Of a DNA stretch of 64,000 nt, positions 461-41,585 are shown piece by piece. Positions within the stretch are counted from its first letter, which is position 1. Every line of letters starts with the position of its first letter. Made by a program: the position numbers and the translations under genes. Origin of the DNA: Thermoplasmatota archaeon (GTDB lineage: Archaea; Thermoplasmatota; JAKEGO01); NCBI GenBank assembly GCA_028279595.1, contig JANQNK010000004.1, forward strand, positions 1 to 64,000, read 5' to 3'. A model generated the notes under the pieces. It worked only from the letters and a program-made list of their open reading frames with translations, made no database searches and had not been told where the DNA came from.

Positions 461-468
461 CTTCTCAC

Positions 469-3929: not shown

Positions 3930-3952
3930 CACAGGCGATTCTGGGGACGGTG

Positions 3953-9167: not shown

Positions 9168-9261
9168 CTAGGTACCGAATGATATATAGAATGGATAATC
9201 TTTGGGACCTACAAATTTGATGAATTCTCATAACCGAAAATTAATTAGATGCTGAGACTAC

Positions 9262-11622: not shown

Positions 11623-11676
11623 GGGTATCGTAATTACAATACCACTAATCCTATTAGTAAGTTACTAGCAAAATGG

Positions 11677-11760
11677 TGCGGGGGAAGGGATTTGAACCCT
11701 CGGACCGCTAAGGACATGGCCCTCAACCATGCGCCGTTGACCAGGCTTGGCTACCCCCGC
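11677..11760 (-). tRNA. tRNA-Leu (anticodon GAG)
   Basis: On the minus strand the acceptor GCGGGGG (11760-11754) pairs with CCCCCGC. The anticodon stem CATGG/CCATG encloses TTGAGGG with anticodon GAG. A long variable arm and the T arm GAGGGTTCAAATCCCTT follow, as expected for a class II tRNA. The discriminator is A, and CCA is encoded in the DNA at 11676-11674. The other two tRNA genes here do not encode CCA. Its 3' end faces the island and is the natural candidate for the attachment site. Confidence 0.95.
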
Positions 11761-11781
11761 ATTGCGTGTGTAAAAGGGGAG

Positions 11782-11856
11782 TGGGCCTGATGAGATTCGA
11801 ACTCACGACCTCCCGGTTATCAGCCGGGCGCTCCAACCAGGCTAAGCTACAGGCCC
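11782..11856 (-). tRNA. tRNA-Ile (anticodon GAU)
   Basis: On the minus strand the acceptor GGGCCTG pairs with CAGGCCC. The anticodon stem CCCGG/CCGGG encloses CTGATAA with anticodon GAT, and the T arm contains GTTCGAATC. The discriminator is A, and CCA is not encoded. It lies 21 bases upstream of tRNA-Leu on the same strand, so the two may be cotranscribed. Confidence 0.95.
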
Positions 11857-16640: not shown

Positions 16641-19600
16641 TTAGTCTCCCATGGCCTTGTCGAGGTCCTCCATCATCTTGTCGTAGTCGTCGGGTCCGGA
16701 GTCATCGGATGCCTCTTCGGCCGGGGCATCGTCCACAGGTGACTCGGAAGGTTCGTCCATCGGTGGTTCGTCGGCAGGGGATTCCTCTGAAGAAGGTTCG
16801 GGGGCCGGATCATCGGTGGCGGCCAATGGTTCCTCGGCAGGAGGTTCGGTTGGAGGTTCATCAGCAGCGGTCGGTGGTTCCTCAGCGGGATCGTCCTTTG
16901 TTGTTTCCTCGTAGAGTTCGTCCTCGGCCGACTCTTCGGGAGGGGTGTCATCCGGCGGTCCATCGACGGGGGTGTCCTCGGAGGGTGTGTCGGCGACGTC
17001 TTCTGAAGGCTTGTCCTCGTCTGGGGTTTCCTCGGAGGGTTTGTCATCGTCGGAGGGTTCGTCCTCCTTCTCCTCTCCATCCTTTTCCTCCTTGTCCTCA
17101 CCCTCCTTGTCCTCGCCTTCCTTCTCCTCGTCGCCCTCCTCCTTGTCCTTCTCCTCGGTCTCGCCCTCCTTGACCTCCTCCTTCTTGCCCTTGGCGGCCG
17201 GCTTCTTGCCCTTCTTCTTTTCGGCCTCCTTCTTCTTCTTGGCTGCTCCGGGCGGGAGGATGCCCTTCTTGAAGAGGACGATGATGAGGAGCACTGCTAC
17301 GACTATCAGGATCAGCAGGAGCGCGATGGCAGCTCCTGCGCCATCGTCTTCCTTGTCCTTCTCTCCGGAAACGGGTTCGACGTAGAACGCTGGTGCGAAC
17401 ACCGTGAAGTGGGTCACGTTGGCCCACATGTAGTTCTCCTCGGTGTTGATGCCCCATACCTCCGGGGTCACCCATTCCTCTCCGTCGTAGTAGTACAGGG
17501 TCAGGTCTGCCTCGTCCTTGCCCTTCGGTATGTTGGACTCGTCGTACGGGATCTCGAAGTATGCCCAGACCATCTCCATGGCTGCCGGTGCGCTGATGTT
17601 GACGAACACGCCGACATCCCTCAGCGTCTCGGGCATGTCGGGTTCCTCCTCGAGGAGCCCGATGCCCACATCACCGATACCGCTGTATGCGATCACGAGG
17701 TGGATACCTGCGTTGTCGTAGGTCTTGATCTCGTTGATGACGGTCAGGTTGCCGCCATCCAGATAGACTTCCGTGATCCCGTCACTGGCGGAGAAGTTGT
17801 ACAAATAGGTGCCCGGCTCCATCGATATGCCCGCGGTGTAGACAACGCCATCCTTGTATCGATTATCCAGTTCCTCCCTGAACATGAGGAACCCAACACC
17901 GTTCAGTAACAGGGTCACATGATCGGGTCGGTCGTTGTCGATATCAGTGTAGACGACAGAGAGATCGAAGGTCTCACCAACGAAATTCCATGATGAGGAT
18001 GCCGTGCCATTGGTAAGAACAGGTGGGGCCAATCCCTTAACCTCGGGTCCGGTCACGTTGTCGGTGAATACATGGTTCAATCCATCGGAACAGAACATCC
18101 AGAAGGAGTGGCGGTCGGCCGGCAGATCGTCGAAGGACCTGTAGTACAGGGTTCCGTTGCCAATGGGGCCACCTTCGAACATCGGGTATCTGACGCCATC
18201 TACCTCGAGGGTCATGTCGGACGTTGGGTCATCGTCCTCGTCGGCGTAGACGACCGTGAAGTTGTATGTGTCTTCGGTCGTCCCGGTGACCGGTGTGACC
18301 GCTGGATCTAACAGCATCGGGACATGGTCGATCACGGTGTACCCGTATGTCCTTGTCATGGAGGTCGGTCCGATCAGCTCCATCGTGACGTTGTAGGAAC
18401 CCCGAGGCGAAGCAGGAATGAGGAATTCGAATTCGGTCTCCGCCTCCTCGTCGAGATCTTGCTCATCCTCCAGGATACCGTTCAGGAGAAGCCTCATGGT
18501 CGTGTTCACCGTCCCGAAGGTGGTGGCTGTGACGGTCACTGTGTCACCTAGCATGTAAACGTCCTTGTCCGTTCCTATACCCAGTATGATGACCCCCTCG
18601 ACGTCGAAGGTCTCAACCCCCTGGTCAAGCCGCAGGTATTCCTCGCCCTCGGCCCAGTAGAGTCCGTAGTTCATCGTATAGACCCCGGGTTCGACCCCAT
18701 TGATCGGGATCGAGATGGTGAAGAAGTTCATATCCTCATGTACAAGGATGTCGTTCTCGGACGTGGTGATCGGCTCGTCCCTTGAATCGTAGATCCAGAA
18801 GTTCAGGTATCCAGTGAATTCATCCCTGCTGTCGATCGCAATATCCAGAGTTACCGTATCGTTAAGCTCGTAGGCGGCCTTGTCCATCTCGATCTCGTCG
18901 ATCTTCGCATAGAGCCCGTCGATCTCGAAGCTGAACATTCCGGGGATGCTGTCGAACGTGTATCTCATCTGATATGTGCCGGCGGCCAACTCTGGGACAG
19001 TGTACTCAAGTACGCCAGGACCGTCGATGTACGCGTCGACGGTCTCGCCATCGGGGCCGGTCACGTTCAGGTCTCCGGTCCTGTTGGCAACTACCTGCAT
19101 CCTCATCGTCTCCCCGGGTTCGTACACCTGTTCCTCCGGATAGATCGAGATTATCGCGGACATGACGCTTACGTATAACGAGCTGAGGTAGAGCGCGCGA
19201 CCCGTGTCCATGTAAACGCCGAAGAACACCTTCTTCTCGCCGACGTCCTCCAGTGGCAGCAGGAACTCAGTGGTCTGCTTCTTCCCGAGATCGAAATGAT
19301 CGATGTACTCGACCCCATCGAAGGTCGCCTTCACGTACATACCAGTAAGGTTGACGTCGAGGCTCTTGGCGGTCGTGTTGATGACCTCGATGGTCAGCAG
19401 GGCGGACTCGCCGGACTGGTATATCGGTGAATCCGTCGATGCATTCACCTCGAAGCTGATCCCCTCGACCGCTAGGGTCGACTCCCAAGTTGCAGTGCCG
19501 ATAGAGTAGTACATGTCGTAGTCGCGGCCTTCGAGGTCATCCGGGATCGGGACCGTGAAGTATACCGTCGTGCTCTCCTGTGGATCGAGGTCGAAGGGTT

Positions 19601-22600
19601 CGAGGTCGGCGTGTATTCCCGGGATGCTCAGCTCGAGGTTGTCGGTGCCTGCGATCTTCCCTACATTGATCACGAGGATGGCTGCTGTGTAGTTCGTGCC
19701 AAGCGTCGCGACCAGTGGAGATGTGACCTGCGCCTCGAACTCGGCTGTCGGTATGGTCATGTTCGTGTCGATGACGACGATCTCCTGACCTCCGACCGAG
19801 AGGATTATCGAGAGGTTGTAGGTCTCCGGATCGAGTGCCGATATGTCGAGAATGAAGTCCTCCTGCAGCTCTCCCCACAATGGGACGTTGACGGACCTTT
19901 CCTCCGTATAGAAGTCAGTGACCATTGACAGGTCGCCGACTATTTCATTGGATCCTATGTTCAGAACGATGACAGATGCGTTGAGCTCACCCTCGGTCAC
20001 CTCGATCTCCAATTCCAGCTCCGCGGTGTTCTCGTCCGCGACGAACAGGTCTTCGGACCCACTGCCGAACAGGGATGTCCAATTCATGAGATAATGGCCC
20101 ACGGTCAGGTTCCATACCGTATTGTCCGAGACCGATCCGCCAGAGTTGACTGTCACCTGTTCCGTAGCCGAGTCTGCTGTTGACCAGCCGTCGACGTCCA
20201 CGGCCTCGAACACTATATCGAAGGTGGAATCTATGTCGCCCGTGTTGTTCACGTAGTACCAGACCTCGACGGACCCGGCGGAGTAGACCACTTCGGGTTC
20301 GACGGATATCTCGTTGGACTCGACCATCTCCACCAGCACGTAGAACTCGTCCTCGACGTCACCTGTCACGTTAACCGTGAACCAGGTGTCCTCCGTGATG
20401 GTAAGCGTCTCCTTGACGGTTGATGTCTCCCCGACCGGAACCGTCACCACATGGTCCTCGGTTATGCGGACGGTGATGTCCGCGTCGACCGTTCCGGTGT
20501 TCTCGACGAGGACGGTCATGTTGAAGGGCGCTAGGCCGACCTCGTCAGGTGCAGTGATGGACACATCGACAGAGGGTTCGAGGACGGGCACGTGCTCGGT
20601 AACGGAAGAGTTTTGGGCCGATCCATCGCCGGCGTCCAATGGTCCGGGTGGAGGATTGATTATCACGATACCGGTGATGTCCGTGGTCACGGCGGCACCG
20701 GTCTCGGCCTGAACGACATAAGTTGTGTAGGCGTCCAGGTCCAGGGTCTCCTCGGTGAGCAGGGTCTCCCCGTCATATATCATCACCGTCATGTTCTCGG
20801 TCTCGTTGCCGTCATTGAACAGGGTCGCATTGATGTAGATCGTCTCACCGACCTTGTAGGCCTTCTTGTTGAGGTCGAGGGTGAGGTATACAGAGCTGTT
20901 CGTGATGTAGATGCTGGTCACGTTCTGCGAGATGACCTGGCCGTATACGTTCAGGAGAGAGGTCAGCAGATAGAGCTTGCCCGTGGCTCCCATATCCGAA
21001 GCGTTCGGATACATCAGGAACTGCTGGGCCTCGAGCTCCGTAATGTTGACCCCGAAGGTCGCGTTCCACAGCGGATTCACTCCGTAGAGTATCGCGGTGT
21101 ACTTCGGCTGCGTCTGGCCGGTGAAGGTCTTTACCGTGGGTTCCGGCGCGACGTCGATGTAGTAGTTCCGTTCTCCGACAGCCGAGCCGGTACAGGATTG
21201 GTCGATGTATGTGGCCTCCATCCCGGTCCCCGGATCGAGCACCGTCACGATGATCTTGTAGTTCCAGTAGGTGTTGCCATAGGACATCCGGATGCGCCAT
21301 GTGCCGGGCTCGTCGAAGTACCACTTGAACGTCCTGGTGCCGTAATTGATCGGGTACTCTCCCTTCTGATTGACGATGCCGCCGATCTCGTCGTAGAGGT
21401 AGAAGTAGGCATAGGTCCAGTCGTAGCTCCAGAACTCCGAGACGACCTCGACGGATAGAAGGGAGCCCTCAACGGCACTGATGGTGTCGCCATTCCCGAA
21501 CTCGCCGGTAGCGTTCGTGACGTTGAAGTAATAGTACCTTGTGTGGACCTGGGTCCCTGAATATCCCTCATGTGAGTAATGCTGGACCGTGCCGTTGGGC
21601 AATACTATTTCGACGTCGAGCCTGTAGTTCCATGCATATCGGTCGAAATGGACATAGATGTACCATGATCCGTTGGTGTTCAGATCGACCTCCAGGACCC
21701 TTTCGGGATCCCATGCCCTCGAGTCGGCAAGGTAGGAGCGCTGCACGGTGCCATCGCCATCGTATATGCGGAGATGCCCATCGTATGTTGGGTCGGTCGA
21801 CGTTATGGTGGTCAGGTTGACCCGCAGGCGGGATCCGGCCGGTACATCGACGATCTCGTCGTAGGTGTATCGGTCGTATCCAGTGTCGGTGACGTTGATG
21901 AAGTAGTGCCTGTGGGAGGAGGTCGAAGAACCTGCCGTTCCACTGTGGCTGGCCGCCTCGACGCCGTTGATGAGGATGGTCACCTCGTAGGTCCAGTAAA
22001 AGTGTGAGTAGTACATGTCGAGGCAGTACGTACCGTTGCTCTCGAGGACGTAGGTGATCGTGCGTTGGCCGAAGTGCTGGACCTGGGAGTACCATCCGGC
22101 GACGGCCCATACACTGTCCCAGACGCCCGGATCGGACTCGGAGTACCTGAGCTTGGCGAAACCATCGTAGCTATGGTAGGAGTAGGACTTCGTGGTGACC
22201 TCGATCTCGACGACGTCGCCCTCCTGAGCGGTGATCACCGAATCGTATGTGAACAGGTCAGCGGTGCCGTTCACGTACAGATAGTAATTGACCGTGTTCG
22301 TGAACCAGGACCCGGCCCACCCGGCGTGTGTGTACGTTATCTCGGTACCGTTCGGGTCAGTGACGTTTATCCTTATCACGTAGTCCCATCTCTCATACTG
22401 GTACCAAAGACCGACCGACCAGTTCCCCTCGGAGTCGGCGATGTAGGACATCTTCCTCTCACCCCACGAGGAGGCATCGTAGATGTACCACCCGGTGACC
22501 CTCGATAGCGGACTGATGATCCAGGATTGACAGTCGCTGCCCGAGTTGATGTAGCCAAGTACCTCGATGCTGACATTGATGGAGGAACCGTACATCACCG

Positions 22601-25600
22601 GGATGCGGGTGCCGTTGTAGTCCCGCTCGGCGATCGTCGGTTGGATGGTGTGGTCGTTGTCGTTCTCGTTTGTCTCCTCGACCTGTGAGTCGGCATCGAC
22701 CGTTACGGTATAGTTCTCCAGACCCTGTCGGACTATGTACATGAATTCGACGTAGTAGGTGTCGGTCTCGTTCAGGCCGTTTATCGTGAAGCCGTCGGAG
22801 TTGACGCCGTTGTCGTATTCTGTAAGGAGGGTGCCATCTCGGTAGAACCTAACGACGAAGTCGCGATGGACGGACGCTCCGGTGTTCTCGATGGTAGCGT
22901 TGAATATCAGGACGTCGCCGTCGCTCAGCGTCCCGACGGGGTCCGAGTCCACCAGGTACGAGTAGGATAGGTCGCTAACTATGAGGTTGGATGCGAAGAC
23001 CTCGGGCATCGTCTCTGTCCTGTCGTTGTTGTCCTCGTGATATTCAGCGATCGTGTCGGTGCTGTCCGTCTCCGCCGTGAAATCCCAGATCCCGGGTGTG
23101 GCGCGCCACGTGAAGGTGGCGACGGCGGATCCGCGCGATCCCAGCATATCTATGGAGTCTGCCCCGATCGAGCTGCCATTGATCTGGAAGTCCACCGTGA
23201 ACGGGACCTCGGCGTCCCATCCTCCTGCATTGTAGACCGTTGCATTCAACTGGTAGTAGTCCCCGTCTATGAAGGGGGTCGGGTACCATGTTAGATCGGT
23301 CACGATGAGGTCCGGTCCGATCACGTGGAAGGCCTGTGACCAGTCATTGTCGTTCTCGTCGGACTCGTCGCATATATCGTGCGGGTCGACCACGATAGTC
23401 ACTGTGTGGTTGCCTGTCCGTGACCACCACATGATGGGCACCGTGACCTCGTAGCCGTCCTCGGTCCCCGTCACGTTCACAAGGGAATCGAGCACGCCAT
23501 CGACGTACAGACCGAGCTGGATCTGGTGGAGGGTGTCCCCACCGGTGTTCTGGACATCGACCTCGAAGGTGATGCCGTCGAGGTTGTGGTAGGTCCTCAC
23601 ATCGTACCAGACGTCGTTTATCGTCAGGTCGGGGATGGTGACGGCCGAATGGGTCTCGTCCCATTCGTTGTTGGTCTCGTCGTCCTCGCGGATGTCATCG
23701 CCGTGGTCGGCAACGAACGTCAGGTTGAGATGGCCGGCTCGCGCAAGCCATGTGAATAACACATCCTCCCACGTGGTTCCGTTCAAACCGTTGACGCGCT
23801 TGGATTCGATGTGTACTCCATCCATCAACATGCCAACGTAGAAGGCACCGCAAGCCACATCGCCGGAGTTCTCGACACGGACCGTGAAGTCCACTCTCTC
23901 TCCGTCGTCAGTGGCCGGGGTGTAGCCCACGGCGAAGATCTCAAGGTCGACGCCGCTAACGTAGATCGCTTCGGTCCTCGAATTGTTCGTTTCGTTGTCC
24001 TCGTTCACCCTTCCGGTGGGGTCCACAGTGACCGTTAATGTCGTGGAATCGCCCATGGTGTGCCACGGGAAGGTCAGGTTCAAGGTCTCGGCGGACATGA
24101 TGGAGGTCACGGTCTGCCTGGCGATCGGGTACCCGTCCGCGTGGAGGTCGACGTAGAAGGATTCGTAGCAATCGTTGCCGTCGTTGTAGACGCTCACGTT
24201 CACGTCCATGGTGCGACCGCTGTTCGGTACGGTGTCCCACCAGATGTCGGTCACGGTAAGGTCGGGACGGAATATGTTCGTGAAACTGGTATGTTCGTTG
24301 TTGGTCTCGTTCGACTCGTCCACGGTCCCCGCGATGTCCGCGACGACCTTGATGTTGTGTCCGGTGTTGATGTCCCTCCAGATCAGTGTGGTGACGATAC
24401 TGTCGCCACCGTCCGGGACGGACTCGCGTGTCACTCCGATGAGGTTGCCGTTCTCGTAGAAGGCAGTGTGGAAGGTCGTTGGCCTCCACAATGTATCACC
24501 GTAATTCGTGACGGTCGCGTTGATGTAGATGTCACCCATGTAGACTGCAGCGGATTTCGAGACGAAATCGACCTGCAGGTCCGCCACGGGCATTGTGCCG
24601 TTGATGGCCCACACGACGGAGTCGTTGAAGATATTACGTCCGACCGAGTAATAGTACTGTGGATCGTATGTGAACATCACGCCGCGACCCCCGGTGGTGG
24701 CGTTCTCCCTTGTGAGCACTGTCTTTCGTTCTGGCGAGTAATTGTTCCGTCCGCGGACGGTCCAACCTGCAAGGGCGGGGTTGGATATCCTGTATGCGGT
24801 TGCGGGGCTCTGGACTGTATGGACACTCCCGACGGTGTAATCGGAGAGGACATTCGAGTTGTCCTCGACATACAGGTTAAGGTATTGAGTTGTGGTGGAA
24901 CCGCTCCAACTTCCACCATATGTGTATCCCGCAGGACCGAGGAGCAGAACAGGTATGGCGTCGTCGATGAGGCCGTTGAAGAAGGCGCTGCCATGACTGT
25001 AGTCGCCGCTGTACGAAGGCATGACGACGATCGAAGCGTTGTCGTAGATCGCATTGCGAGCGCTGTGCCTCGAGATGTATTCCACCGTGTAACCGAGGTC
25101 GTCGAGGTAACCGTCCACCGCGGACTCGCGTGCTGATAGGGTCGGGGTCTCGTCGTCATCACTGACGATGATGAGGACCGCAGCACCACTCGAGAACCTT
25201 ACCTTGTCGACCGGCTCTTCCATCACATAGGCGACCAGTCGATCGAAGGTGTCGTTCCCCTGTACCGTTAGGTACCGTGGATCGTAGGTGAACACGGCGC
25301 CAACCGCGGAGCCGCTCCCTGTGTCCCTTATCAGGCATGTCTTCCTTTCACCGCTGTATGCGTTCCTGCCGATAACCGACCACCCCACCCATGACGGGTT
25401 GGACACTCTATAGGCGGTGCCAGCATACATCATGTGTGAGTTGAAACCGCCATACTCCTCCATGAATCCGGTCGTGGACTCGGTGACCAGCCTCAGGTAG
25501 TTGCCAGTCGAGGACGAGCCCCAGCTCGAGGTGGAGATCAGGTACCCGCCGTTGTAGATGAGTCCAAGGCCGACACCGTTGTCGACGATTCCGTCCATGA

Positions 25601-34600: not shown

Positions 34601-37600
34601 AGTATTCTACAACGATTATCGAATCCTCGTCCAAGGCCCGGTCGAATATACCCATGTCGGCGAAGACCTCGGTGAAGTTGACCATCAGCCGGACCTCTGC
34701 GTCCGTCCGGTTCTCCCCGGATGTGTTGATCTTCAATGGCATCCTGTAGCGCAGATTGGTGCTGTACCACGGGCTCTCGCCCTCCATCTCGCTGAGGTCC
34801 GACGAGAATGCCTGGACCAGCAGTGTGCCGTTCTCGATGGCCTTGCCGATGTTCGTCACGTTCACCATTATCTCGACGCCGTCGGCAACATAGTACACGG
34901 TGTCGTTCGCCGCCACGGTCATATGGGCCTCCAGTCCGTCGATCACGAGCGTTGCCGTAATCTGGATGAGGTCCCCGGTCTCGGTGTCCTTGGCGTTGAT
35001 GAGGGTGAAGTACTCGCCCGAAAGGGCCTGGTCGAAGATGTCGTATCCGAAGGTGATGTTCTCGTCGGCCATTATCGAACCGTTCTCCTCCATCCTCGTG
35101 AACCTCTGGTAGTGCGGATCGAAGATGTCGAGACTGAAGGTGTAGTTGGTATCGACACCGCCGTCGTTCCTCAACATGACGTCCAGGGTATCCTCGATGC
35201 TGAAGGAGAGGTTTGCCAGGTGGAGTTCGAGCTGCGAGGACGGTATCGTGAACTGGAACTCGTGATAGGCCGTTTCGTTCTGGGTGACGGTTACGTTGAT
35301 GAGGTGGGCGCCAGCCATGAGATATGTCGGAAGGGCGAAGACGGCCGACTGAGTGCTTCCATCTCCCGAGTCCAACAGCACGTTGTAGGCATCGCTGTCT
35401 CCGGTCTCGGGGATCGATATGACGATGTCAAGGTTCTGCTGCCATACTCCGGAATCGGTGATATTGAGGGTGTATCCAAGGTCCTCGCGGATGCGGTAGG
35501 AGGGCTTGTCCAGGTCGACGGTCAGGGCGTACCTGTTGGGGAGATCCACCCGTCCGGTCAGGGAACGGACGTCCCACAGCACCTCGTAGGCGAGGTAGTA
35601 CGTCCCGAAAACAGGCTCCGGCACGGTGATGTTGATCTCCTTCGATATCTCTCCATAGGCTGGTATTCCGAAGGAGCTGTTGACCATGGCGAGCTCGACG
35701 TCGTATGGATCGAACAGCTTGACGGAGAGCTTCGCGCCGGTCGCCGGGAGGGGACTATCGTTAGAGATGTAGACAGTGAACGTGTTGTTGGTGTTCGGAA
35801 CGATCGGATCCGGCAGGTCGACCTTCCGGACGAGGAGCTTCGGTCCGACCTCGATGAACTTGCGGTCCAGGGTCTGTTGACGAGATCCGCTGAACAGTCG
35901 TGCGCGGACCATGTACTGGCCGAACTGCATCGGGGCCGTCATGTCGTAATACTTGATCTCAGTCGAGTGGGCGGGCACTGTGATGTATGTAGTCGCCGAG
36001 CTGTAGGTCGTCTGCTGCAATCCGTCAAGGATGTCGAGGTATATCGTGTAGCTGAGTTCGTTGGCGTTCGGATTGTAAACGGACATGCTTACATTGATGG
36101 TCTCGTTCGGAGCGTAGTCGTCAAGGTTCGTGATGATATTGATTATGCTGGCTTGGCCTTTCAGTACGCCGTACCGGCGCTCTATGAAGGCGATCTGGTC
36201 CCCTGACCAATCGGATCCGGTGTACAGATAGGAGACCGTTCTGAAATCCCACTGCGAGGTCGCAAAGCGTTCCGTGTACTCGCCATAGGAGTTCGGGGCG
36301 ATGTTGACGTTCACCTTGTGGTACCAACCGTTTGCAGCGCCGCCGTAACCCCACCATAGGACGTGGCCCCTGCCCCACACACCGAACTTGACGCTGCCAT
36401 TGAACCAGGTGTCCTCGTGGTTGTTGATGAAGAACGTGACGAACCCAGGTTCGCCTCCGTCATCGTCGGGGCTTCCGTACGAACCTGTGACGTAGTAGTA
36501 GTTCTTGTCGAAGACCACCCAGAAGTCCACACCTTCCGGTATCACCTTCTTCAATGATTCGTTGAAGTCGCTTAGAGCAAAGGCATCGACGTCGTTCACG
36601 ACCGTGATGTTGTGGAACCCGTTATCGGCTCCGATGTAGTCGACCCGGTAGACACCGTGATCGTCGTATCCGGCGAGGTCGTTGAAACTCCCACCGACAG
36701 CTTTCACGCAATCTACGACCGTGCCGTTCGGTCCGATGATTATGGCGTACTCCGCTTCCATACCGGTCGAGTTCATCTCGAGCGGTATCGGGGTCTCGGG
36801 CTCGATCGTCTCTACGCTCGATGGTTCCGGCACCATGAGATAGGAGAGCATCGCGTCGAGGATCTCGATCTCGTCCGAGGTCCCGGACCCGAAGACCATC
36901 GCGAAGTCAGGATACATCGTCGTGGCCATGATGTACCCGTTCCCGTATGGATACATGACCATGGCCGGCATCTTGTTCGCGGCCCTGGTCAGCAGAACGG
37001 TGGCGTTCGTCGGCCAATCCATGAAGAAGCCGTCGATGTTCAGATCGAGGTAGACCTCGCCCTTGGAGTTCGGGGCCTTGACCTGGGACATCGGAGAGAA
37101 GACCGGATTGTAGTTCTCGATGTAGACGGAGCCGAGGAGACAGTTCTGGTCCTCCTGGTAGCCGTACCCGTCGAGTCCGCCGGGGAGTCCGGCCCACTCG
37201 TATCCGTACTGCTGGGTCATCGCAAGGATGTTCCCGCCGTTCTCGAGGAAGAGTTCGAGCTTCAATCTGACGATGTCCGATCCGCCGGAGGGATCGGTGA
37301 GGTCGTAAAGACCGCCCGAGGGGACGACAAGGACCTTCAGTTCGTTGAGCTCATTGATTGTTATGGTTCCGAGGTCCACGAATCGAGCATCGCGTCCCGT
37401 GCTGTTTATCAGCGTCATCATCTCGTTCGGGAATCCCTTGTCAACGATGCCGATCTCGGATTCCGGGGCATCCGTTGAGGTCACGTTGACCACATTGCTC
37501 CCGAGGACGAATACGTCGTCCGGATTGTAGGGCGGACAGTCCTTGGGGTCCTTGCATGGATCACAATTCGGCTGGTATGGGTCCTCGCAACACCATCGCT

Positions 37601-40600
37601 CCTTGTAATCCTGGATATGGCTACATTTATCACGTCGGCATTTCTTGTCGTCTGGGTTGATACAACATTTCTTGTTGTCACCTTCCAGCTCGTCGCAGCA
37701 CTGGCCGGTCTCGGGGTTCGGATCCTTGCACTCATCGCACTTGATCTTCATCCTGACCGTGTGTTTGGGGCGTTTACTGTCGTCGGTGGTCCTCTGGAAG
37801 ATGCAGCCGTACTTGTCGACCACCTTCATCTCGTAGTTCTTGGTCTCGCCGGCCGGTATCGTGACACGGTGCGTCCCCTTCCAGACGTCTGTATCCACGT
37901 ATTCGGCGGGATCGAGCTTTTCGATGATGGCGGTGAAGACCACGCCGCCATCCTCCTTAAGGGACACCTCTATCCCTTTACTTGGAACGGTACCGAGATT
38001 GTAGACCTCCATGTTTATGTCGTAGACACACGGTTCGTTGTTCTCACCGCCCGAGACCTTGACGGCCCGTATCTTCGCCCTGGGTTTGACCTCGCATTTT
38101 CGACCTTTGTCGGCAATGTAATCAATGAGCTTCCCGACCTGGGGACATATCAACTTGTTGCCGAGCCACCGGGCAGCGTAGAACGTGATCCTGTAGATCA
38201 GTGGAGCCGTCGCCGCGCCGATCCCAACCGTTAGTCCGGTGACGCCGGTGACCATGATGTTCCCGAGGGTAGCGTCGGCGATCAACCCTATGATCTCACC
38301 GCAGGCCCAGTCGAAGACTATCGTTAGGAACAGGCGTATACAACACCAGATGTACGTGGCGACGTTGAGCGCGGTCGCTGCCGATCCGAGGACACATTCG
38401 ACGAAACGCCAAACTTGGATTATGGCTTTCGCTATCTTTGGTATCAGGTCCAGCGGGATACCGAGTACGTCTCCGATCGGGCCCAGGATCTCAGCTGCGA
38501 AATCGAGAGCGCCCTCGATGGTATTACGGAACCATTCGAGACCTTCCCTCTCGCCTCTCCAGAGCTTTCGGAAGTTGTTCAGGACCTCCTGGACCTTTGC
38601 CTTTGCCTTGTAATACAGGTTCTTGATGATCGATACTGCCTTGATGCCCAGTTGCTTGGCGATGGGCTTTATCACCTTCCATTGCTCAACGATCCAATCC
38701 TTGATGTCGCCCGCAAGGGCCCAAAGGTCCTTGATCACCTTGATGAACCAGATGGCGTGCTGGTATTGGGTCGACAGAACGATGTTGGCGACGGCGCCGG
38801 TCTCAGGATCGACTATCCTGAAGGCGTAATAGAGCACACCGTCGACGATTATGCCGGCAGCGATGATGTCGACCTCGTATCCAAGGTCGATCGCATCCAT
38901 TATCCTCTCTAGGACCTGAGAGGGAAGCGTGACGTTCGCCAGTACTTCTTCGTAGTTGTCGGGCGTGATGTGAATTACCGCAATCCCAACCTGCGAGGCT
39001 ATCCCGAGCAGGTCCTCGTAACTCACGGCCCGGGTCTCGTTGAAGATGATGGCACCGACCATCGACTCGATGTAGGACGAGTATTCGCCCGAGTTCAGGG
39101 TGAACAGATAGTCGGCCGTGACCGGGTCCCGCTGCTCCGGGCGGAAGCTCGCCTGGACGGGATCCCTGAGCAGGTCCAGCGAGTACAACGGTGCGAAGAC
39201 AAGAGGTGCCCCGAATCCGAAATAACCGCCGCTGTTGGCGATGACCGCCGATGGGCCTGGGCGCCACCACCATCCGAGGAGGTCCGCAGCCTCGGTGTCG
39301 TAGCTCTCAGCGACCCAGACGTGGAGCATCGTTGCGGCCATCTCGAGATAGGCGTCTGTGGCGTCAGAGAGGGAGGCGTTCTCGACATCCCCGTGGTTCT
39401 CGAGTCGGAAGTTGAGGGTCCTACCGTTCATCTTTCCAACGTCGAAGCTGACCACGGAATCCGCACCGGCCACCGATACGGAGTTGGTGGTGTCCTCGCC
39501 CCAGGGCGCAGTGAATGTGATTGTGAGGTCGAGCGTATCACCGCCGTGGAGCACCATCGACGAGGTATCGATGGTCCTGGCGTTCATTTCGAGTGCCGGG
39601 GTGTAGCCTATCAGGAAGGGGGGAGCATCCCTGCCCATCTCGTCGATCAGGTCCTGACCGGTAGAGGTCGGCTCATACCTGATGTGCATCGGGAATGTGG
39701 CCATTCGCCCGGCGAAGCCGGAATAGCCCACCACGGAGGTGCCGTTATCCTTCAAAGTGACCGTGATCGTATGGCGCAGCGCGGTCGGGACCTCGGCGTA
39801 GTTGTCCGCTCTGGCCGTTACCGTATAGTTGAGACCTGTCGGGAACGCTGTCCTGTTGGAGACATCGGGCTCCTCGTAGGCGCTGAAGTTGGCGGCCCCC
39901 GAAACATAGGTAGTGCCGTCACTGACGAAGGTTCCGTTGATGGCCTCGAGGTCCTCGAAGTTCCATGACGGGTCCATCTCGACCCACTCCCCGTCCACCC
40001 AGGCCGCAACCCAGTGGTGCTCGAATATGATATCCGAGCCCATCATGTCGGCGGGTATCCCGCAGGACCGGAGGATAGCGGTCGCATTCTCCTGGGTATC
40101 GGTCCGCAGCCAATCTGCGACGTCGGCCCAGGGCGCTCGAACAGTACCGAAGACATACCGGCTGGCCACGTCCCTCTCGCGGAGCATGGCGATCAGTAGT
40201 GACGCCTGGTCGACATCGTTGCCGGACCTCTGCATAAGGGTCTGGTCCGCTCCCTTGAGCGACCCGAGGTACGGCTCATAGGCCACACCCTCGAGGACCC
40301 ACCAGAAGAGCTTCTCGACATCCATCGAGTTGGCCTTCTGATACACGGACTCGGATGACCAAGCATCCTTGGTCTCGTTCAGGTCCGCAGCCGTAGTGCT
40401 GACCGGCAGCGCGCTCGTGTCCATCACCGGTTGGTCCCCTCCATCGAGCTCGATGGTGAAATGTGACAGGGGATCGAGGTCAACACCCGAATCGGGGTCG
40501 GCGACGGTCGCTTCGTACACGACGTCCAGGACGTCCTGTATCTCAGCCTGATAGTTGCGGATGGATCGGAGTACCGCAACTTCACTGATGTCCTCGGGCC

Positions 40601-41285
40601 TCGATAGGATCGGAACTATCGTCTCTTCGAGCCAATCGGCCCGGCCCAGGACATCGTCCATCTCCGTCCGGTACGAGGTCAGAGAGGTCGAGAATGAAGC
40701 GTAGGCTTCATCCATCTGTGAGTCATTTCCACCGGCCATATCGCCAAGGAAATCGTCATAATCGTCGGAGATATCGATGAACTCCCCATAGGATGCCTCG
40801 AGCTTTTTGATGTCGAGTATCGTTGTTATCGTGTGGGCCTTCACGTATTCGAGGTACGACCCTCCCTCCTCGCTCTCGATGCCGAGCGCCACGGCCGCCT
40901 CGTTGCTGACATCCGTTATCTCTAGGGTCTGGGAACCGCAGAATGAACAGTTATCGTCCTCCTCCTCCTCGGGTTCCTCCTCTGTCGGATCGATTATCTC
41001 CCTGTAAAGGTTCTGGAGATCGAGGGTAAGGTTGTTCAGGTTCTCCTGCACGGCCATGAACGATCCGTAGAACTCTGCTGATTCGTTCAGGTAACCGGTC
41101 CTTGTTTCATTTCCCTCGTCCTGTGCGATCGGTACTGCGGCAGCGGCACCGCTGTCTCTCTTCCCATCGTCGGCGAATGCCAGGGCCTGAAGGTAGGCTC
41201 CGGCGAAGGTCGACGAAAGCAGTAGCACGACAAGGGCTACGCTGACGAACATTCCTCTCTTTCCAACACTAAATCTCCATCTCAT
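16641..41285 (-). CDS. Giant secreted mosaic surface protein, 8214 aa
   Basis: This is one uninterrupted frame of 24.6 kb. Approximate residue positions: signal peptide 1-32 (MRWRFSVGKRGMFVSVALVV); helical region 33-330; transglutaminase-like domain 335-450, with His and Asp kept (HHWVAAWVDG, MDPSW) but NDV where GDC is expected; hydrophobic helical region 895-1062; CARDB-like 1065-1172; 13-Cys segment 1179-1265; GATase-like domain 1259-1485 and another at 2262-2428; CUB domain 2842-2939; discoidin (F5/8 C) domain 3162-3297; FG-GAP repeats 3409-3749; seven GATase-like repeats of about 200 aa at 4142-5562; six CARDB domains to about 6222; four PPC-like repeats to about 6712; Ig-like domains to 7975; membrane helix 7981-8006; charged 208-aa cytoplasmic tail. 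The start at 41285 has GGAGATG upstream and gives a proper signal peptide. It is probably an adhesin or an enormous cell-surface stalk. The domain names are pattern-based. Confidence 0.9.
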   Translation of the reverse strand: MRWRFSVGKRGMFVSVALVVLLLSSTFAGAYLQALAFADDGKRDSGAAAAVPIAQDEGNETRTGYLNESAEFYGSFMAVQENLNNLTLDLQNLYREIIDPTEEEPEEEEDDNCSFCGSQTLEITDVSNEAAVALGIESEEGGSYLEYVKAHTITTILDIKKLEASYGEFIDISDDYDDFLGDMAGGNDSQMDEAYASFSTSLTSYRTEMDDVLGRADWLEETIVPILSRPEDISEVAVLRSIRNYQAEIQDVLDVVYEATVADPDSGVDLDPLSHFTIELDGGDQPVMDTSALPVSTTAADLNETKDAWSSESVYQKANSMDVEKLFWWVLEGVAYEPYLGSLKGADQTLMQRSGNDVDQASLLIAMLRERDVASRYVFGTVRAPWADVADWLRTDTQENATAILRSCGIPADMMGSDIIFEHHWVAAWVDGEWVEMDPSWNFEDLEAINGTFVSDGTTYVSGAANFSAYEEPDVSNRTAFPTGLNYTVTARADNYAEVPTALRHTITVTLKDNGTSVVGYSGFAGRMATFPMHIRYEPTSTGQDLIDEMGRDAPPFLIGYTPALEMNARTIDTSSMVLHGGDTLDLTITFTAPWGEDTTNSVSVAGADSVVSFDVGKMNGRTLNFRLENHGDVENASLSDATDAYLEMAATMLHVWVAESYDTEAADLLGWWWRPGPSAVIANSGGYFGFGAPLVFAPLYSLDLLRDPVQASFRPEQRDPVTADYLFTLNSGEYSSYIESMVGAIIFNETRAVSYEDLLGIASQVGIAVIHITPDNYEEVLANVTLPSQVLERIMDAIDLGYEVDIIAAGIIVDGVLYYAFRIVDPETGAVANIVLSTQYQHAIWFIKVIKDLWALAGDIKDWIVEQWKVIKPIAKQLGIKAVSIIKNLYYKAKAKVQEVLNNFRKLWRGEREGLEWFRNTIEGALDFAAEILGPIGDVLGIPLDLIPKIAKAIIQVWRFVECVLGSAATALNVATYIWCCIRLFLTIVFDWACGEIIGLIADATLGNIMVTGVTGLTVGIGAATAPLIYRITFYAARWLGNKLICPQVGKLIDYIADKGRKCEVKPRAKIRAVKVSGGENNEPCVYDINMEVYNLGTVPSKGIEVSLKEDGGVVFTAIIEKLDPAEYVDTDVWKGTHRVTIPAGETKNYEMKVVDKYGCIFQRTTDDSKRPKHTVRMKIKCDECKDPNPETGQCCDELEGDNKKCCINPDDKKCRRDKCSHIQDYKERWCCEDPYQPNCDPCKDPKDCPPYNPDDVFVLGSNVVNVTSTDAPESEIGIVDKGFPNEMMTLINSTGRDARFVDLGTITINELNELKVLVVPSGGLYDLTDPSGGSDIVRLKLELFLENGGNILAMTQQYGYEWAGLPGGLDGYGYQEDQNCLLGSVYIENYNPVFSPMSQVKAPNSKGEVYLDLNIDGFFMDWPTNATVLLTRAANKMPAMVMYPYGNGYIMATTMYPDFAMVFGSGTSDEIEILDAMLSYLMVPEPSSVETIEPETPIPLEMNSTGMEAEYAIIIGPNGTVVDCVKAVGGSFNDLAGYDDHGVYRVDYIGADNGFHNITVVNDVDAFALSDFNESLKKVIPEGVDFWVVFDKNYYYVTGSYGSPDDDGGEPGFVTFFINNHEDTWFNGSVKFGVWGRGHVLWWGYGGAANGWYHKVNVNIAPNSYGEYTERFATSQWDFRTVSYLYTGSDWSGDQIAFIERRYGVLKGQASIINIITNLDDYAPNETINVSMSVYNPNANELSYTIYLDILDGLQQTTYSSATTYITVPAHSTEIKYYDMTAPMQFGQYMVRARLFSGSRQQTLDRKFIEVGPKLLVRKVDLPDPIVPNTNNTFTVYISNDSPLPATGAKLSVKLFDPYDVELAMVNSSFGIPAYGEISKEINITVPEPVFGTYYLAYEVLWDVRSLTGRVDLPNRYALTVDLDKPSYRIREDLGYTLNITDSGVWQQNLDIVISIPETGDSDAYNVLLDSGDGSTQSAVFALPTYLMAGAHLINVTVTQNETAYHEFQFTIPSSQLELHLANLSFSIEDTLDVMLRNDGGVDTNYTFSLDIFDPHYQRFTRMEENGSIMADENITFGYDIFDQALSGEYFTLINAKDTETGDLIQITATLVIDGLEAHMTVAANDTVYYVADGVEIMVNVTNIGKAIENGTLLVQAFSSDLSEMEGESPWYSTNLRYRMPLKINTSGENRTDAEVRLMVNFTEVFADMGIFDRALDEDSIIVVEYSADNTIKWVVESEVKAGVPLASDLFHNTYSPKPKFLYLVGSRTDYNLAARTTGYYQSVKRVQYNDAEASTIIEDLDDYDIVIMDGIQATSEFDIGNQDTQDTIVDYVTEGGVFIFMCPTISMDVFGVHHVSGWRNDNVVLVDDDHPLADISGGQSYNGWSYSETNGYWTNWESDDFDPIYVDSADTDEFGVTLERFIGDGTLILEAQEVGYPYNTQGTWKARNMFRYATQFGHYLDRAYDAENNALVQITWTMNGTTNDTASRFYSVYFNSRTGDDLPMDPVIEAPEGFYNVRVLDEYVNASEEVQVSFGFWNETNNTLYSIMYSFDSNGTMGDGNWTQAEVIEAATETPTTAGWSKGYYWQYTYGLKPVAGYAGTYDTDNSGYASYNNYLPDDDFYDNEILFFDGYRYNNYVDSVIDGAASGHMVVTDHYTFEEVLRRVTYAGIKSFVSHSTTSHFIYHGGGIIVDGDHDDDGYLGYDWDDYSAVQQEDLGAHFKALYDDAFIFKAILPPAGMTTTTYFYIVTQDTINDTWENSTVQSYFVDGEGPAIDDILTYPTTPLLDTMDPIDVTASLSDDTGVQSVSLHFTYDGDDVWTGEKVMEDMAGAGVDQYVYGVESTHPYDSNVDDWYTITETGVGAIRVHFTKIELEQGLDKVRIYDGSENLIQTITGRHEDLWTDWVDDDVLLIRFTSDTGISGYGFHADVYETDDSWGAFMAYDEEYEDHLNSGDHYIGDSRASNVAYVNVYVDDPEDIVRATLTISTGGIDHDTDGVWFNEPNRTAGNVLGTLEVGSTSNVFEVPFDTILDGTNTIAIVAGTLNGLDPEGNSFMWNEDLDIYDVTLRVWYANVPYNATEVAYYVTAIDLAGNTAMSPTYTAYLDTPAWIGDPVPDPFYPTGDDDVTVSVPITDSQGIEEAVLIYGVQSSPWNIATTEMGATITANDYYSSQFAPEEAIDGLGEDGSTQQNYWLTSNYYSGAYLELEFDRTYLVDTVNLLNTRNAGYWDRSTGNFRLSVSLDGVEFDVVHSGTLVEDDIVNWYTANLNPVAARYMRFHVDSYFGAGGGLAEIEVYAAYNWSYGIMDNTGDIYSAEIPATGNTTWVYYYIIVNDTLGHQTTSIGNYYVTDDTPPDIWTISSIPTVPSANMPIDVSAFASDNLGLDGYTLHYGYDGVNYTEVEFEPRSDTTDIDEDGEPEIVLGTYYGNYIINKTWGIEHNPDGGYLYTRGSAYAIADTDMDGVPNLISANSDTDGTFAQVYQWNGSGYDLQTTLGDEVDHSYDTSVFTIDVGDIDGNGIPDIVIPAYYDRIYVYEWAGYDYQLKYMFRTSIYPRDMELVNIDDDPAEEIIIGRDWYRFEVYDLVEGVLELVWYSDDIDFQYMEIGDLDGDGLNEIIVGTYRQLHIYEIGMDGIELEYQSGDLGYYIYVSDVWDYDGDGRNEVAVYGYEDWYVPPSGPTVYFFNTTVYEFYDESDYEDELIVVDDIISYRTSSFHSLRVPHWGDFDSDGEVEVVYADNNYNWLHVYNFTGNGTPEETNYFYTTGHSYQSITSSGVPRDLIARIPGASGGTLYYYIEVEDLAGNVNTTEVFTVDIDLSAPSIDDHTEYGTDRNAYDYIPIEADISGGDVLGAYLVHNATGTETRVRMYENVNENGSVLHYADCGLVDEEYLVQGDPVSLWKALWPHTTKAERTVRSHDSQVIYRFPVDPDDHYVVEVTYLQNAGEERTQRLLSGSYVVHGPISLPEYKPNNYRLPVPMDSYSDGNMTLVFESLTGINAVVSEITVIEYMTEPTVNYRAYIPPSYDEIDVEYYVETADMAMNTARSPMSSYTTYFANRPPVITDIIETPSGNDIVISAEITDSDGVNGATLFSSTDMETWTSAAMTSSVDTWSATIDTVTVDDRVYYYIEATDGDGLINKTPIFRTNLPVVALVVDHPAALSQGEHAAVFLLSENNFRVELIDDDSADVTNLSAYEIIVVVNSWDLDGDDIDTLIDDHGVSVVLLWYGAYSLGSSGSYSSYGYLYGSSDEAFMEPYHGSRVTVQTFQDVNLYCLYWYNTYPSGWTPLDQQGAYWFSGYRENMTSGGRGAIYPYVPHRLTSEGEAVFSSVMTWAANEDVVRREIPAGNAVLVIQSEHEEIPYLTEREAQTASMLEDHGYTVTYVSDHEVGIYDMSNAALIVMTEWAVDDHVGSLMVQDWIDSGLKVLLLSYGGRNIGGTWSYGTSTSYYNSVIIDSTGYLSDYDSYTFTTLTDTRYDFIYADIPANWTVASYSNTANYYGMLYQENGTSGGKGAVFVFDPRYLADDGQWLFNLTIDYLEDVSQPTIQIDSGKVAFIISSYDYQAPSLTSREMEVRDLLNRYGFDIQYISAKEARRGDYSNAEFVVMAEYNTWNYIRSSFIHGLIDDGVSIGLFAYAAQGMGGSWSWSTDYRMRQFFGENDTAFASGLKDLSFYTTLTTNTPYIYANYPAGWTYIGRNVYSVDHKTAFIRENMTSGGRGAILTYDVFDLNTYGRHLYRRTFDYLANNSWPEDAVEHGTAVLVVEDITSRDPTLTSRERAVDTLLKDNGYDVTYLSHIELRNVDLTNALLVAVPHRYGGLSPDGTYYNQMIDSGVNLLLMYNSGESYGGSWGASTTGNYLNAGVMSDTAFLEGFHSFSMTMQSGGYAYRLSNDPPYGWTTIARNLYSGERHTMFYNESSVSDGRGAMITYDPLYFTIEGKEVFRQATAWLARHPAPAYTVPSGNALILTANADPSIMNNREVTAGDMLEDRGYTISYYGQYLAEFIDYSNVSMVVMAGYNSWKILGNEWAIGLIDSGTPLLMLADAATTISTSGWGWSTTANYLRLVTESATGFLEDYGGYNFQVQTGGAWRFSSSSIPSGWTWIGRNAYSGERKTAIIHDNTTIGSRGVILTFDPYYYNYAGRLLFNRTIDWIEHKETPYHTFSSDVVIATVSEDYLTPTLSSNEANVRDRLIAAGYTVDYISHKEIKRADFSGVRAVFATGYSSYYPVGKTFMDGIVDNGVGLGLIYNGGYLISTSSWGSSSTGNYLRLVTESTTGFMEEYGGFNSHMMYAGTAYRVSNPSWVGWSVIGRNAYSGERKTCLIRDTGSGSAVGAVFTYDPRYLTVQGNDTFDRLVAYVMEEPVDKVRFSSGAAVLIIVSDDDETPTLSARESAVDGYLDDLGYTVEYISRHSARNAIYDNASIVVMPSYSGDYSHGSAFFNGLIDDAIPVLLLGPAGYTYGGSWSGSTTTQYLNLYVEDNSNVLSDYTVGSVHTVQSPATAYRISNPALAGWTVRGRNNYSPERKTVLTRENATTGGRGVMFTYDPQYYYSVGRNIFNDSVVWAINGTMPVADLQVDFVSKSAAVYMGDIYINATVTNYGDTLWRPTTFHTAFYENGNLIGVTRESVPDGGDSIVTTLIWRDINTGHNIKVVADIAGTVDESNETNNEHTSFTNIFRPDLTVTDIWWDTVPNSGRTMDVNVSVYNDGNDCYESFYVDLHADGYPIARQTVTSIMSAETLNLTFPWHTMGDSTTLTVTVDPTGRVNEDNETNNSRTEAIYVSGVDLEIFAVGYTPATDDGERVDFTVRVENSGDVACGAFYVGMLMDGVHIESKRVNGLNGTTWEDVLFTWLARAGHLNLTFVADHGDDIREDDETNNEWDETHSAVTIPDLTINDVWYDVRTYHNLDGITFEVDVQNTGGDTLHQIQLGLYVDGVLDSLVNVTGTEDGYEVTVPIMWWSRTGNHTVTIVVDPHDICDESDENDNDWSQAFHVIGPDLIVTDLTWYPTPFIDGDYYQLNATVYNAGGWDAEVPFTVDFQINGSSIGADSIDMLGSRGSAVATFTWRATPGIWDFTAETDSTDTIAEYHEDNNDRTETMPEVFASNLIVSDLSYSYLVDSDPVGTLSDGDVLIFNATIENTGASVHRDFVVRFYRDGTLLTEYDNGVNSDGFTINGLNETDTYYVEFMYIVRQGLENYTVTVDADSQVEETNENDNDHTIQPTIAERDYNGTRIPVMYGSSINVSIEVLGYINSGSDCQSWIISPLSRVTGWYIYDASSWGERKMSYIADSEGNWSVGLWYQYERWDYVIRINVTDPNGTEITYTHAGWAGSWFTNTVNYYLYVNGTADLFTYDSVITAQEGDVVEIEVTTKSYSYHSYDGFAKLRYSESDPGVWDSVWAVAGWYSQVQHFGQRTITYVLESNGTYCLDMYYSHFYWTYEVTILINGVEAASHSGTAGSSTSSHRHYFINVTDTGYDRYTYDEIVDVPAGSRLRVNLTTITSTDPTYDGHLRIYDGDGTVQRSYLADSRAWDPERVLEVDLNTNGSWYIYVHFDRYAWNYRLDVEIVLPNGTVQHYSHEGYSGTQVHTRYYYFNVTNATGEFGNGDTISAVEGSLLSVEVVSEFWSYDWTYAYFYLYDEIGGIVNQKGEYPINYGTRTFKWYFDEPGTWRIRMSYGNTYWNYKIIVTVLDPGTGMEATYIDQSCTGSAVGERNYYIDVAPEPTVKTFTGQTQPKYTAILYGVNPLWNATFGVNITELEAQQFLMYPNASDMGATGKLYLLTSLLNVYGQVISQNVTSIYITNSSVYLTLDLNKKAYKVGETIYINATLFNDGNETENMTVMIYDGETLLTEETLDLDAYTTYVVQAETGAAVTTDITGIVIINPPPGPLDAGDGSAQNSSVTEHVPVLEPSVDVSITAPDEVGLAPFNMTVLVENTGTVDADITVRITEDHVVTVPVGETSTVKETLTITEDTWFTVNVTGDVEDEFYVLVEMVESNEISVEPEVVYSAGSVEVWYYVNNTGDIDSTFDIVFEAVDVDGWSTADSATEQVTVNSGGSVSDNTVWNLTVGHYLMNWTSLFGSGSEDLFVADENTAELELEIEVTEGELNASVIVLNIGSNEIVGDLSMVTDFYTEERSVNVPLWGELQEDFILDISALDPETYNLSIILSVGGQEIVVIDTNMTIPTAEFEAQVTSPLVATLGTNYTAAILVINVGKIAGTDNLELSIPGIHADLEPFDLDPQESTTVYFTVPIPDDLEGRDYDMYYSIGTATWESTLAVEGISFEVNASTDSPIYQSGESALLTIEVINTTAKSLDVNLTGMYVKATFDGVEYIDHFDLGKKQTTEFLLPLEDVGEKKVFFGVYMDTGRALYLSSLYVSVMSAIISIYPEEQVYEPGETMRMQVVANRTGDLNVTGPDGETVDAYIDGPGVLEYTVPELAAGTYQMRYTFDSIPGMFSFEIDGLYAKIDEIEMDKAAYELNDTVTLDIAIDSRDEFTGYLNFWIYDSRDEPITTSENDILVHEDMNFFTISIPINGVEPGVYTMNYGLYWAEGEEYLRLDQGVETFDVEGVIILGIGTDKDVYMLGDTVTVTATTFGTVNTTMRLLLNGILEDEQDLDEEAETEFEFLIPASPRGSYNVTMELIGPTSMTRTYGYTVIDHVPMLLDPAVTPVTGTTEDTYNFTVVYADEDDDPTSDMTLEVDGVRYPMFEGGPIGNGTLYYRSFDDLPADRHSFWMFCSDGLNHVFTDNVTGPEVKGLAPPVLTNGTASSSWNFVGETFDLSVVYTDIDNDRPDHVTLLLNGVGFLMFREELDNRYKDGVVYTAGISMEPGTYLYNFSASDGITEVYLDGGNLTVINEIKTYDNAGIHLVIAYSGIGDVGIGLLEEEPDMPETLRDVGVFVNISAPAAMEMVWAYFEIPYDESNIPKGKDEADLTLYYYDGEEWVTPEVWGINTEENYMWANVTHFTVFAPAFYVEPVSGEKDKEDDGAGAAIALLLILIVVAVLLIIVLFKKGILPPGAAKKKKEAEKKKGKKPAAKGKKEEVKEGETEEKDKEEGDEEKEGEDKEGEDKEEKDGEEKEDEPSDDDKPSEETPDEDKPSEDVADTPSEDTPVDGPPDDTPPEESAEDELYEETTKDDPAEEPPTAADEPPTEPPAEEPLAATDDPAPEPSSEESPADEPPMDEPSESPVDDAPAEEASDDSGPDDYDKMMEDLDKAMGD

Positions 41286-41585
41286 GGTTTCATCTCCGAT
41301 CCTCGCACCCAAGGATTAGCCCCCACGGCGCCCATCCACGGTCCCCTGGATAGCGACCGTACGGTAACGGATGCAGGGATAATAAGATTAACCCTCGTAA
41401 TTGACCTACTGGATTGTCAAATTTTGCACAACTAATTAATATCGAAATCCATGTCAAATCTAGCCCGATCTTACCATTGTTCCAATGATAAAGGTCAGGT
41501 CGAGAATAAACGAAACGATGTAAAAGAATGTTCAAAAAGGTAATATATCAATTACCGCGAAGAGGAATGTAGAGAAGGGATCGAC
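41286..41585. promoter_or_regulatory. Divergent control region of giant gene and its neighbour
   Basis: These 300 bases hold no gene. For the giant gene a CTTATTATCC box at about 41376-41385 (minus strand) implies an untranslated leader of roughly 65-90 bases, unlike the leaderless genes elsewhere. For the plus-strand gene at 41586 a TAATATAT box lies at 41541-41548. Confidence 0.5.
41539..41556 (+). promoter_or_regulatory. Inverted repeat over the TATA box of the 41586 gene
   Basis: GGTAAT-ATATCA-ATTACC is a perfect 6-base inverted repeat whose left half overlaps the TAATATAT box. A repressor bound here would block TBP. It lies 30 bases before the GTG start. Confidence 0.5.

What the first reader, a model, noticed from the sequence alone, without database searches (positions are those of the whole stretch)
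16641..41285. An 8214-residue archaeal surface protein
A single 24.6 kb frame with a signal peptide, a series of unrelated extracellular domains, one membrane helix and a 208-aa charged cytoplasmic tail. It takes up over a third of the window and ends in a strong terminator. It is among the very largest archaeal proteins that sequence can suggest, and its role is unknown.
Basis: partly seen in the sequence, partly recalled or inferred. Interest (0 to 1): 0.7.

Follow-up and report, generated by a model that had tools for sequence, protein, structure and literature searches.

The report
Conserved 8,214-residue archaeal surface fibre protein
An uncultured archaeon carries one unbroken gene for a giant membrane-anchored surface protein of about 913 kDa, and related archaea keep the same protein with nearly the same domain order, so it is a real and selected molecule, most likely a long fibre for attachment or contact.

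Summary
The frame is real: 16641-41285, minus strand, ATG start, 8,214 codons, no internal stop. It is not an assembly join. One contig of a different genus carries a single 6,622-codon frame that aligns to residues 26-6566 in one piece at 51% identity, and contigs of two further genomes bridge the rest, so every point between residues 26 and about 8208 is spanned by an independent assembly. Third codon positions diverge most throughout.

The protein is extracellular with one C-terminal membrane helix and a 209-residue acidic tail. It is modular: a transglutaminase-like domain whose catalytic Cys is replaced by Asp, a helical hydrophobic block, a Cys-rich knot, several very conserved domains unknown to Pfam, CUB-like and discoidin-like modules, an FG-GAP propeller, seven tandem glutamine-amidotransferase-fold domains (a fold supported by prediction only), six CARDB domains, four PPC-like repeats and an Ig-like stalk.

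Orthologues were found in all three held genomes of its class and in one genome of another class; a divergent form occurs in two more. Two longer archaeal proteins are published (9,159 and 9,409 residues), so size is no record. The likely role is a long, non-enzymatic adhesin or contact fibre. That is inferred, not shown.

The parts
16641..41285 (-). Whole gene, 8,214 aa, about 913 kDa, pI 4.1
   Evidence: no stop; collinear orthologues
41294..41297 (-). GGAG, possible ribosome binding site 8 nt before ATG
   Evidence: by eye
41172..41285 (-). Residues 1-38: signal peptide or N-terminal anchor (cleavage ambiguous)
   Evidence: hydropathy; also present in G001 and G002
39969..40325 (-). Residues 321-439: transglutaminase-like domain, catalytic Cys replaced by Asp357; His423 and Asp438 kept
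   Evidence: Pfam PF01841 E 2e-12; alignment with 11 other TG domains
38103..38771 (-). Residues 839-1061: all-helical block, partly hydrophobic, conserved Cys
   Evidence: low-confidence AF2 secondary structure
37536..37739 (-). Residues 1183-1250: Cys-rich knot
36186..37502 (-). Residues 1262-1700: conserved domains without Pfam match (identity mostly 60-85% to G001, 52-72% to G002 and G011)
33801..34523 (-). Residues 2255-2495: conserved domain without Pfam match
32496..32750 (-). Residues 2846-2930: CUB-like module (just under the Pfam cut-off)
   Evidence: 20.9 bits against 21.4
31416..31772 (-). Residues 3172-3290: discoidin (F5/8C)-like module
   Evidence: phmmer to PDB 2j7m and 2j1a (module of a hyaluronidase), E 6e-4; the name of the module is my knowledge
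30066..31052 (-). Residues 3412-3740: FG-GAP repeats with six DxDx[DNS]G loops, probably a beta-propeller
   Evidence: Pfam E 3.4e-13; motifs
24561..28823 (-). Residues 4155-5575: seven tandem domains of about 205 aa with a class I glutamine-amidotransferase-like fold, almost without Cys
   Evidence: AF2 pLDDT 81.5; Foldseek
22626..24539 (-). Residues 5583-6220: six CARDB domains
   Evidence: Pfam E 1.3e-79, six stretches
21150..22604 (-). Residues 6228-6712: about four PPC-like repeats
   Evidence: weak Pfam PPC hit under cut-off
17376..21098 (-). Residues 6730-7970: Ig-like stalk before the membrane
   Evidence: Ig-like by eye only; collinear in G001 and G002
17271..17336 (-). Residues 7984-8005: transmembrane helix
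   Evidence: hydropathy 3.81
16644..17270 (-). Residues 8006-8214: acidic Lys/Pro-rich cytoplasmic tail ending in a short helix-like segment
16592..16628 (-). Hairpin followed by C7T6 after the stop codon
11955..13016 (-). Winged-helix-type regulator gene, downstream neighbour in the window and in G001 (75% identical)

Best explanation
Shown: an intact, selected gene for an 8,214-residue modular protein with an N-terminal export-type signal, extracellular-type domains and a single strong C-terminal membrane helix. Inferred: it is exported N-terminus first and stays anchored by its C-terminus, so the N-terminal third (degenerate transglutaminase, helical block, Cys-rich knot, the most conserved orphan domains) forms the distal end of a fibre perhaps 200-300 nm long. 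The CUB-, discoidin- and FG-GAP-type modules along it bind ligands (glycans, proteins or other cells) without enzymatic action; the GATase-fold, CARDB, PPC and Ig domains act as spacers. The cytoplasmic tail, variable except for its end, holds or senses the fibre from inside. Most likely work: adhesion or cell-cell and cell-particle contact.
For: Intact frame. Collinear orthologues in three other genomes, one with 6,541 residues in a single alignment. Third codon positions diverge most in every 500-residue bin. Ligand-binding-type modules. Enzyme-like parts lack their nucleophiles: TG Cys to Asp, GATase-fold repeats nearly Cys-free. Single strong TM and polar tail with a similar short end in G000, G001 and G002. 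Adhesion or cell contact is the usual reading for proteins of this make-up (PMC12863079; PMC10266531).
Against: No ligand, expression or localisation data. Domain order is steadier than in many adhesins, which suggests a fixed structural job as readily as adhesion. The N-terminal model is poor (pLDDT 47), so what the tip does is unknown. The signal may be an uncleaved anchor and the hydrophobic block near residue 1000 may touch the membrane, which would change the topology.
Confidence: 0.5

Rival explanations
1. A structural envelope component (coat or S-layer-like scaffold) that covers the cell or spaces its layers, without specific ligand binding.
For: Domain order and sequence are conserved across two classes; identity to G011 (about 50%) is close to that of LeuRS (51%), which would be unusual for a diversifying adhesin. 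No repeat expansion beyond 7-8 GATase-like copies.
Against: An 8,214-residue heterogeneous chain is a poor unit for a regular lattice; it carries several classic binding modules.
Confidence: 0.2
2. A contact device for interaction with another microbe (host, partner or prey), comparable with the giant proteins of nanohaloarchaea, in which the tip touches or enters the other membrane.
For: Similar size, pI and anchoring; conserved hydrophobic Gly/Ala-rich helical block with conserved Cys at the presumed distal end.
Against: No ATPase domain in the protein and no secretion ATPase among the flanking genes scanned; the CDC48-type AAA gene at 47582-49780 is housekeeping-like. The genome is not a reduced symbiont genome (2.29 Mb).
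Confidence: 0.15
3. A surface receptor whose tail passes on an external signal (ligand or tension).
For: Long tail with a similar short segment at its very end in three genomes; the G002 tail carries two CxxC/CxxC motifs of zinc-ribbon type; a regulator gene is a downstream neighbour in two genera.
Against: No known signalling domain; the rest of the tail is low-complexity and differs between orthologues; the regulator gene may be near by chance.
Confidence: 0.1
4. A secreted digestive scaffold or enzyme for polymers.
For: Transglutaminase/peptidase-like and GATase-like domains; discoidin and CUB-like modules often accompany extracellular enzymes.
Against: Both enzyme-like parts lack the catalytic Cys; no glycoside hydrolase or peptidase family found.
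Confidence: 0.04
5. An assembly join or artefact.
For: All genomes involved appear to be metagenome-assembled (the three named relatives are MAGs).
Against: Independent assemblies span every point between residues 26 and about 8208; coding-type divergence throughout.
Confidence: 0.01

Closest known systems
Giant surface proteins of nanohaloarchaea (SVXNc_0300, 9,409 aa; BNXNv_0298, 8,880 aa; 'SPEARE' proteins), PMC10266531
   Same: Archaeal, giant, signal sequence, membrane-anchored, Ig-like arrays, pI about 4
   Different: They carry a VirB4/TraG-like ATPase domain and a neighbouring secretion ATPase; none found here. Sequences were not compared directly
Halomucin of Haloquadratum walsbyi (9,159 aa), PMC4378361
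   Same: Archaeal, similar size, exported
   Different: Secreted and only loosely attached, mucin-like, C-type lectin domains in one strain; here a membrane helix and no such Pfam match
Huge archaeal proteins surveyed in UniProt (PMC11573180)
   Same: Over 5,000 residues, binding-type modules
   Different: Almost all carry Laminin_G_3, which was not found here; the term Thermoplasmat- does not occur in the main text searched
Bacterial giant surface proteins, e.g. Apilactobacillus Giant1-5 (PMC12863079)
   Same: Up to 8,000 residues, surface exposed
   Different: N-terminal beta-solenoid; no tandem GATase-fold array mentioned in the abstract, the only part read
Class I glutamine amidotransferase fold (e.g. 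GATase subunit of M. jannaschii GMP synthetase, PDB 7yc6; IFT52 N-terminal domain, 5fmr)
   Same: Predicted fold of the 205-aa repeats, TM about 0.6 to 7yc6 and 1wl8 (normalised by target)
   Different: 9-12% identity, seven in tandem, extracellular, almost no Cys

Membership tests
Giant membrane-anchored archaeal surface protein (descriptive class) | Single frame over 5,000 aa with export signal and membrane anchor | tested here: met
Giant membrane-anchored archaeal surface protein (descriptive class) | Made and displayed on the cell surface | not testable with these tools
   no proteomics or imaging
Nanohaloarchaeal SPEARE-type giant | VirB4/TraG-like ATPase domain | tested here: not met
   Pfam on the whole protein
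Nanohaloarchaeal SPEARE-type giant | Adjacent secretion ATPase gene | tested here: not met
   flanking genes scanned; only a CDC48-type AAA ATPase about 6 kb upstream
Halomucin | Secreted, loosely attached, no membrane anchor | tested here: not met
   strong C-terminal TM
Halomucin | C-type lectin domains (present in one strain only) | tested here: not met
   no such match
Active transglutaminase-like enzyme (PF01841) | Sequence family membership | tested here: met
   47.8 bits against cut-off 23
Active transglutaminase-like enzyme (PF01841) | Catalytic Cys of the Cys-His-Asp triad | tested here: not met
   Asp in G000, G001 and G002, Ser in G034
Class I glutamine amidotransferase (205-aa repeats) | Fold | tested here: met
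   AF2 model and Foldseek; prediction only, a profile search of PDB sequences found nothing convincing
Class I glutamine amidotransferase (205-aa repeats) | Nucleophile Cys | tested here: not met
   only two Cys in residues 4155-5575 (4271, 5317), so at least five of seven repeats have none

The most novel reading that the evidence does not exclude
A so far unnamed family of about 8,000-8,600-residue archaeal surface machines, conserved end to end across two classes of Thermoplasmatota, in which a degenerate transglutaminase and a hydrophobic helical block form a tip carried on an array of recruited, catalytically dead amidotransferase-fold domains and used to engage another membrane.
Probability: 0.12. 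Interest if true: 0.75.

Novelty: new variant of a known kind. Interest (0 to 1): 0.5.

Why it matters
Giant prokaryotic proteins are often suspected of being artefacts or freely reshuffled repeat adhesins. This one has orthologues that keep nearly the same domain order over more than 8,000 residues across two archaeal classes, at an identity not far below that of LeuRS. That makes its function a well-posed question and provides several domains new to Pfam, plus a predicted tandem amidotransferase-fold array in an extracellular setting.

Tried and rejected
Assembly join: rejected. Horizontal transfer of the whole gene between G000 and G011: pairwise identities suggested it, but the four-taxon tree groups G000 with G001 and gives no support. 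Domains 1262-1510 and 2255-2495 as further members of the GATase-like repeat family: looked so by eye, not supported by profile comparison (probability below 1%). Fold of the N-terminal third: model too poor to search (pLDDT 47), so not used. The first attempt at a collection scan failed for lack of conserved stretches; the second found three named relatives, limited by its two peptide patterns. Literature on such Thermoplasmatota giants: none found; a search for isolate names returned only unrelated hits.

Full report
OBSERVATION. The minus-strand frame 16641-41285 is open for 8,214 codons from an ATG with GGAG 8 nt upstream. The protein has a calculated mass of 913 kDa and pI 4.1. G+C at third positions stays at 0.71-0.82 along the gene. 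The many long frames on the other strand and in other phases are most likely by-products of this composition, since the divergence pattern fits the minus-strand frame (below).

IT IS NOT AN ARTEFACT. Relatives were searched in whole genomes. All three held genomes of the class (G000, G001, G002) have it, and so does one genome outside that class, G011. The 19,868-base contig C70 of G001 is one frame of 6,622 codons and aligns with residues 26-6566 in one piece at 51% identity. G011 C39 covers 4430-7658 and G002 C60 covers 6338-8208. Together these span every point from residue 26 to about 8208. Contigs of the relatives end inside the gene, so their full lengths are sums of pieces: about 8,270 residues in G001 and 8,560 in G002 if the pieces are adjacent, which is inferred. 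Codon positions differ between G000 and G001 by 0.36, 0.29 and 0.52 for first, second and third, with the third highest in every 500-residue bin.

DISTRIBUTION. With a profile of residues about 612-1262, strong full-length matches to that profile were found in 4 of 390 phylum genomes (two more had weak partial hits). With a profile of the 205-residue repeats, 6 of 194 had matches: the same four plus G034 and G040, one genus of another family. In those two the order FG-GAP region, repeats, CARDB-like, PPC-like is kept at about 25% identity; G034 contigs C407 and C327 share a 21-base end. A transglutaminase-like head exists in G034 on another contig and may or may not belong to the same protein. 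None of the genomes with matches is over 90% complete, so the number of carriers is a lower bound, while 0 of 203 genomes of high completeness matched, so rarity in the phylum is well supported.

ANATOMY. Pfam finds Transglut_core, FG-GAP, a CUB-like match just under its cut-off, and six CARDB stretches. Phmmer finds a discoidin-like stretch. Self-comparison finds tandem repeats of about 205 residues and of about 125 residues; a profile counts exactly seven of the former. Repeat numbers are 7 in G000, 7 in G001, 8 in G002, 8 in G011 with one cut by a contig end, and 7 each in G034 and G040. A model of residues 4140-4787 reached pLDDT 81.5, and its best PDB matches are class I glutamine amidotransferases; sequence profiles did not find this relation, so it rests on prediction. 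The region has two Cys in 1,421 residues, so an amidotransferase nucleophile is missing from at least five of the seven copies. In the transglutaminase-like domain, alignment with 11 other PF01841 domains from these genomes puts Asp357 at the Cys position, with His423 and Asp438 retained; the same is seen in G001 and G002, and Ser in G034. Cys loss is seen in several of the other aligned domains too, so this is not unique. The N-terminal third was modelled poorly (pLDDT 47) and only its helical character at 839-1061 is used, with caution. Residues 1262-1700 and 2255-2495 are among the best conserved long stretches and match no Pfam family.

CONSERVATION. Per-100-residue identity to G001 ranges from 36% to 85%, with peaks at 301-400, 1301-1700 and 3201-3300. 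As a yardstick, LeuRS of the same genomes is 66%, 55% and 51% identical to G001, G002 and G011, against about 51-53%, 41-47% and 48-55% for the giant's main alignments. G011 lacks about 126 residues between 2947 and 3074, so single domains can be gained or lost. A four-taxon tree of residues 620-2900 groups G000 with G001.

NEIGHBOURHOOD. Divergent and upstream lie two paralogous secreted proteins, downstream DUF6855 and an HxlR-type regulator. A winged-helix-type regulator about 3.6 kb downstream has a 75% identical counterpart downstream of the giant in G001. In G002 the downstream genes differ: four small exported, partly pilin-like proteins (by eye). So no operon partner is conserved in all.

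MECHANISM. Shown: intact, selected, exported-type, single strong C-terminal anchor, several binding-type modules, enzyme-like domains without their nucleophile. Inferred: an extended fibre with the N-terminus outermost. At roughly 4 nm per domain of about 100 residues, the ectodomain could reach 200-300 nm; this is an estimate, not a measurement. I favour adhesion or contact (0.5) over a structural coat (0.2), a contact device of the nanohaloarchaeal sort (0.15) and a receptor (0.1).

COMPARISON. Halomucin (9,159 aa, PMC4378361) and nanohaloarchaeal giants (up to 9,409 aa, PMC10266531) are longer. This protein fails the tests for either group (membrane anchor in place of free secretion, no lectin domain, no VirB4/TraG ATPase) but belongs to the same general kind. 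It is filed as a new variant of a known kind.

Noticed in passing
window 2001-10000, 10130-11098, 11674-11856: A low-G+C stretch (39-46%) with a beta-helix/NosD protein of 1,399 aa, next to a tyrosine integrase gene and tRNA-Leu and tRNA-Ile genes: looks like an integrated element.
   Followed up: no
window 41586-42506 and 42689-43633: Two tandem paralogous secreted proteins of about 310 aa, 40% identical, divergent from the giant gene, without Pfam match.
   Followed up: partly
window 58910-59767: Exosortase/archaeosortase-like membrane protein just over the Pfam cut-off.
   Followed up: no
G000:C1 about 127829-144580 (L051, L081), outside the window: A second giant frame of 5,584 codons with PA14, FG-GAP, NEW3 and PKD domains.
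   Followed up: partly
L049, end of frame 20-6046 (G002): The cytoplasmic tail of the G002 orthologue holds two CxxC-x(n)-CxxC motifs of zinc-ribbon type that G000 and G001 lack.
   Followed up: no
L021 2-8092 (G011:C31): A paralogue of the N-terminal third (26% identity to residues 367-2073) that lacks most of the Cys-rich knot and continues into a different protein.
   Followed up: partly
L067 3-7046 (G034:C350): A transglutaminase-like head with Ser at the Cys position in a 2,348-codon frame whose end looks like a squalene-cyclase-type repeat (by eye).
   Followed up: no
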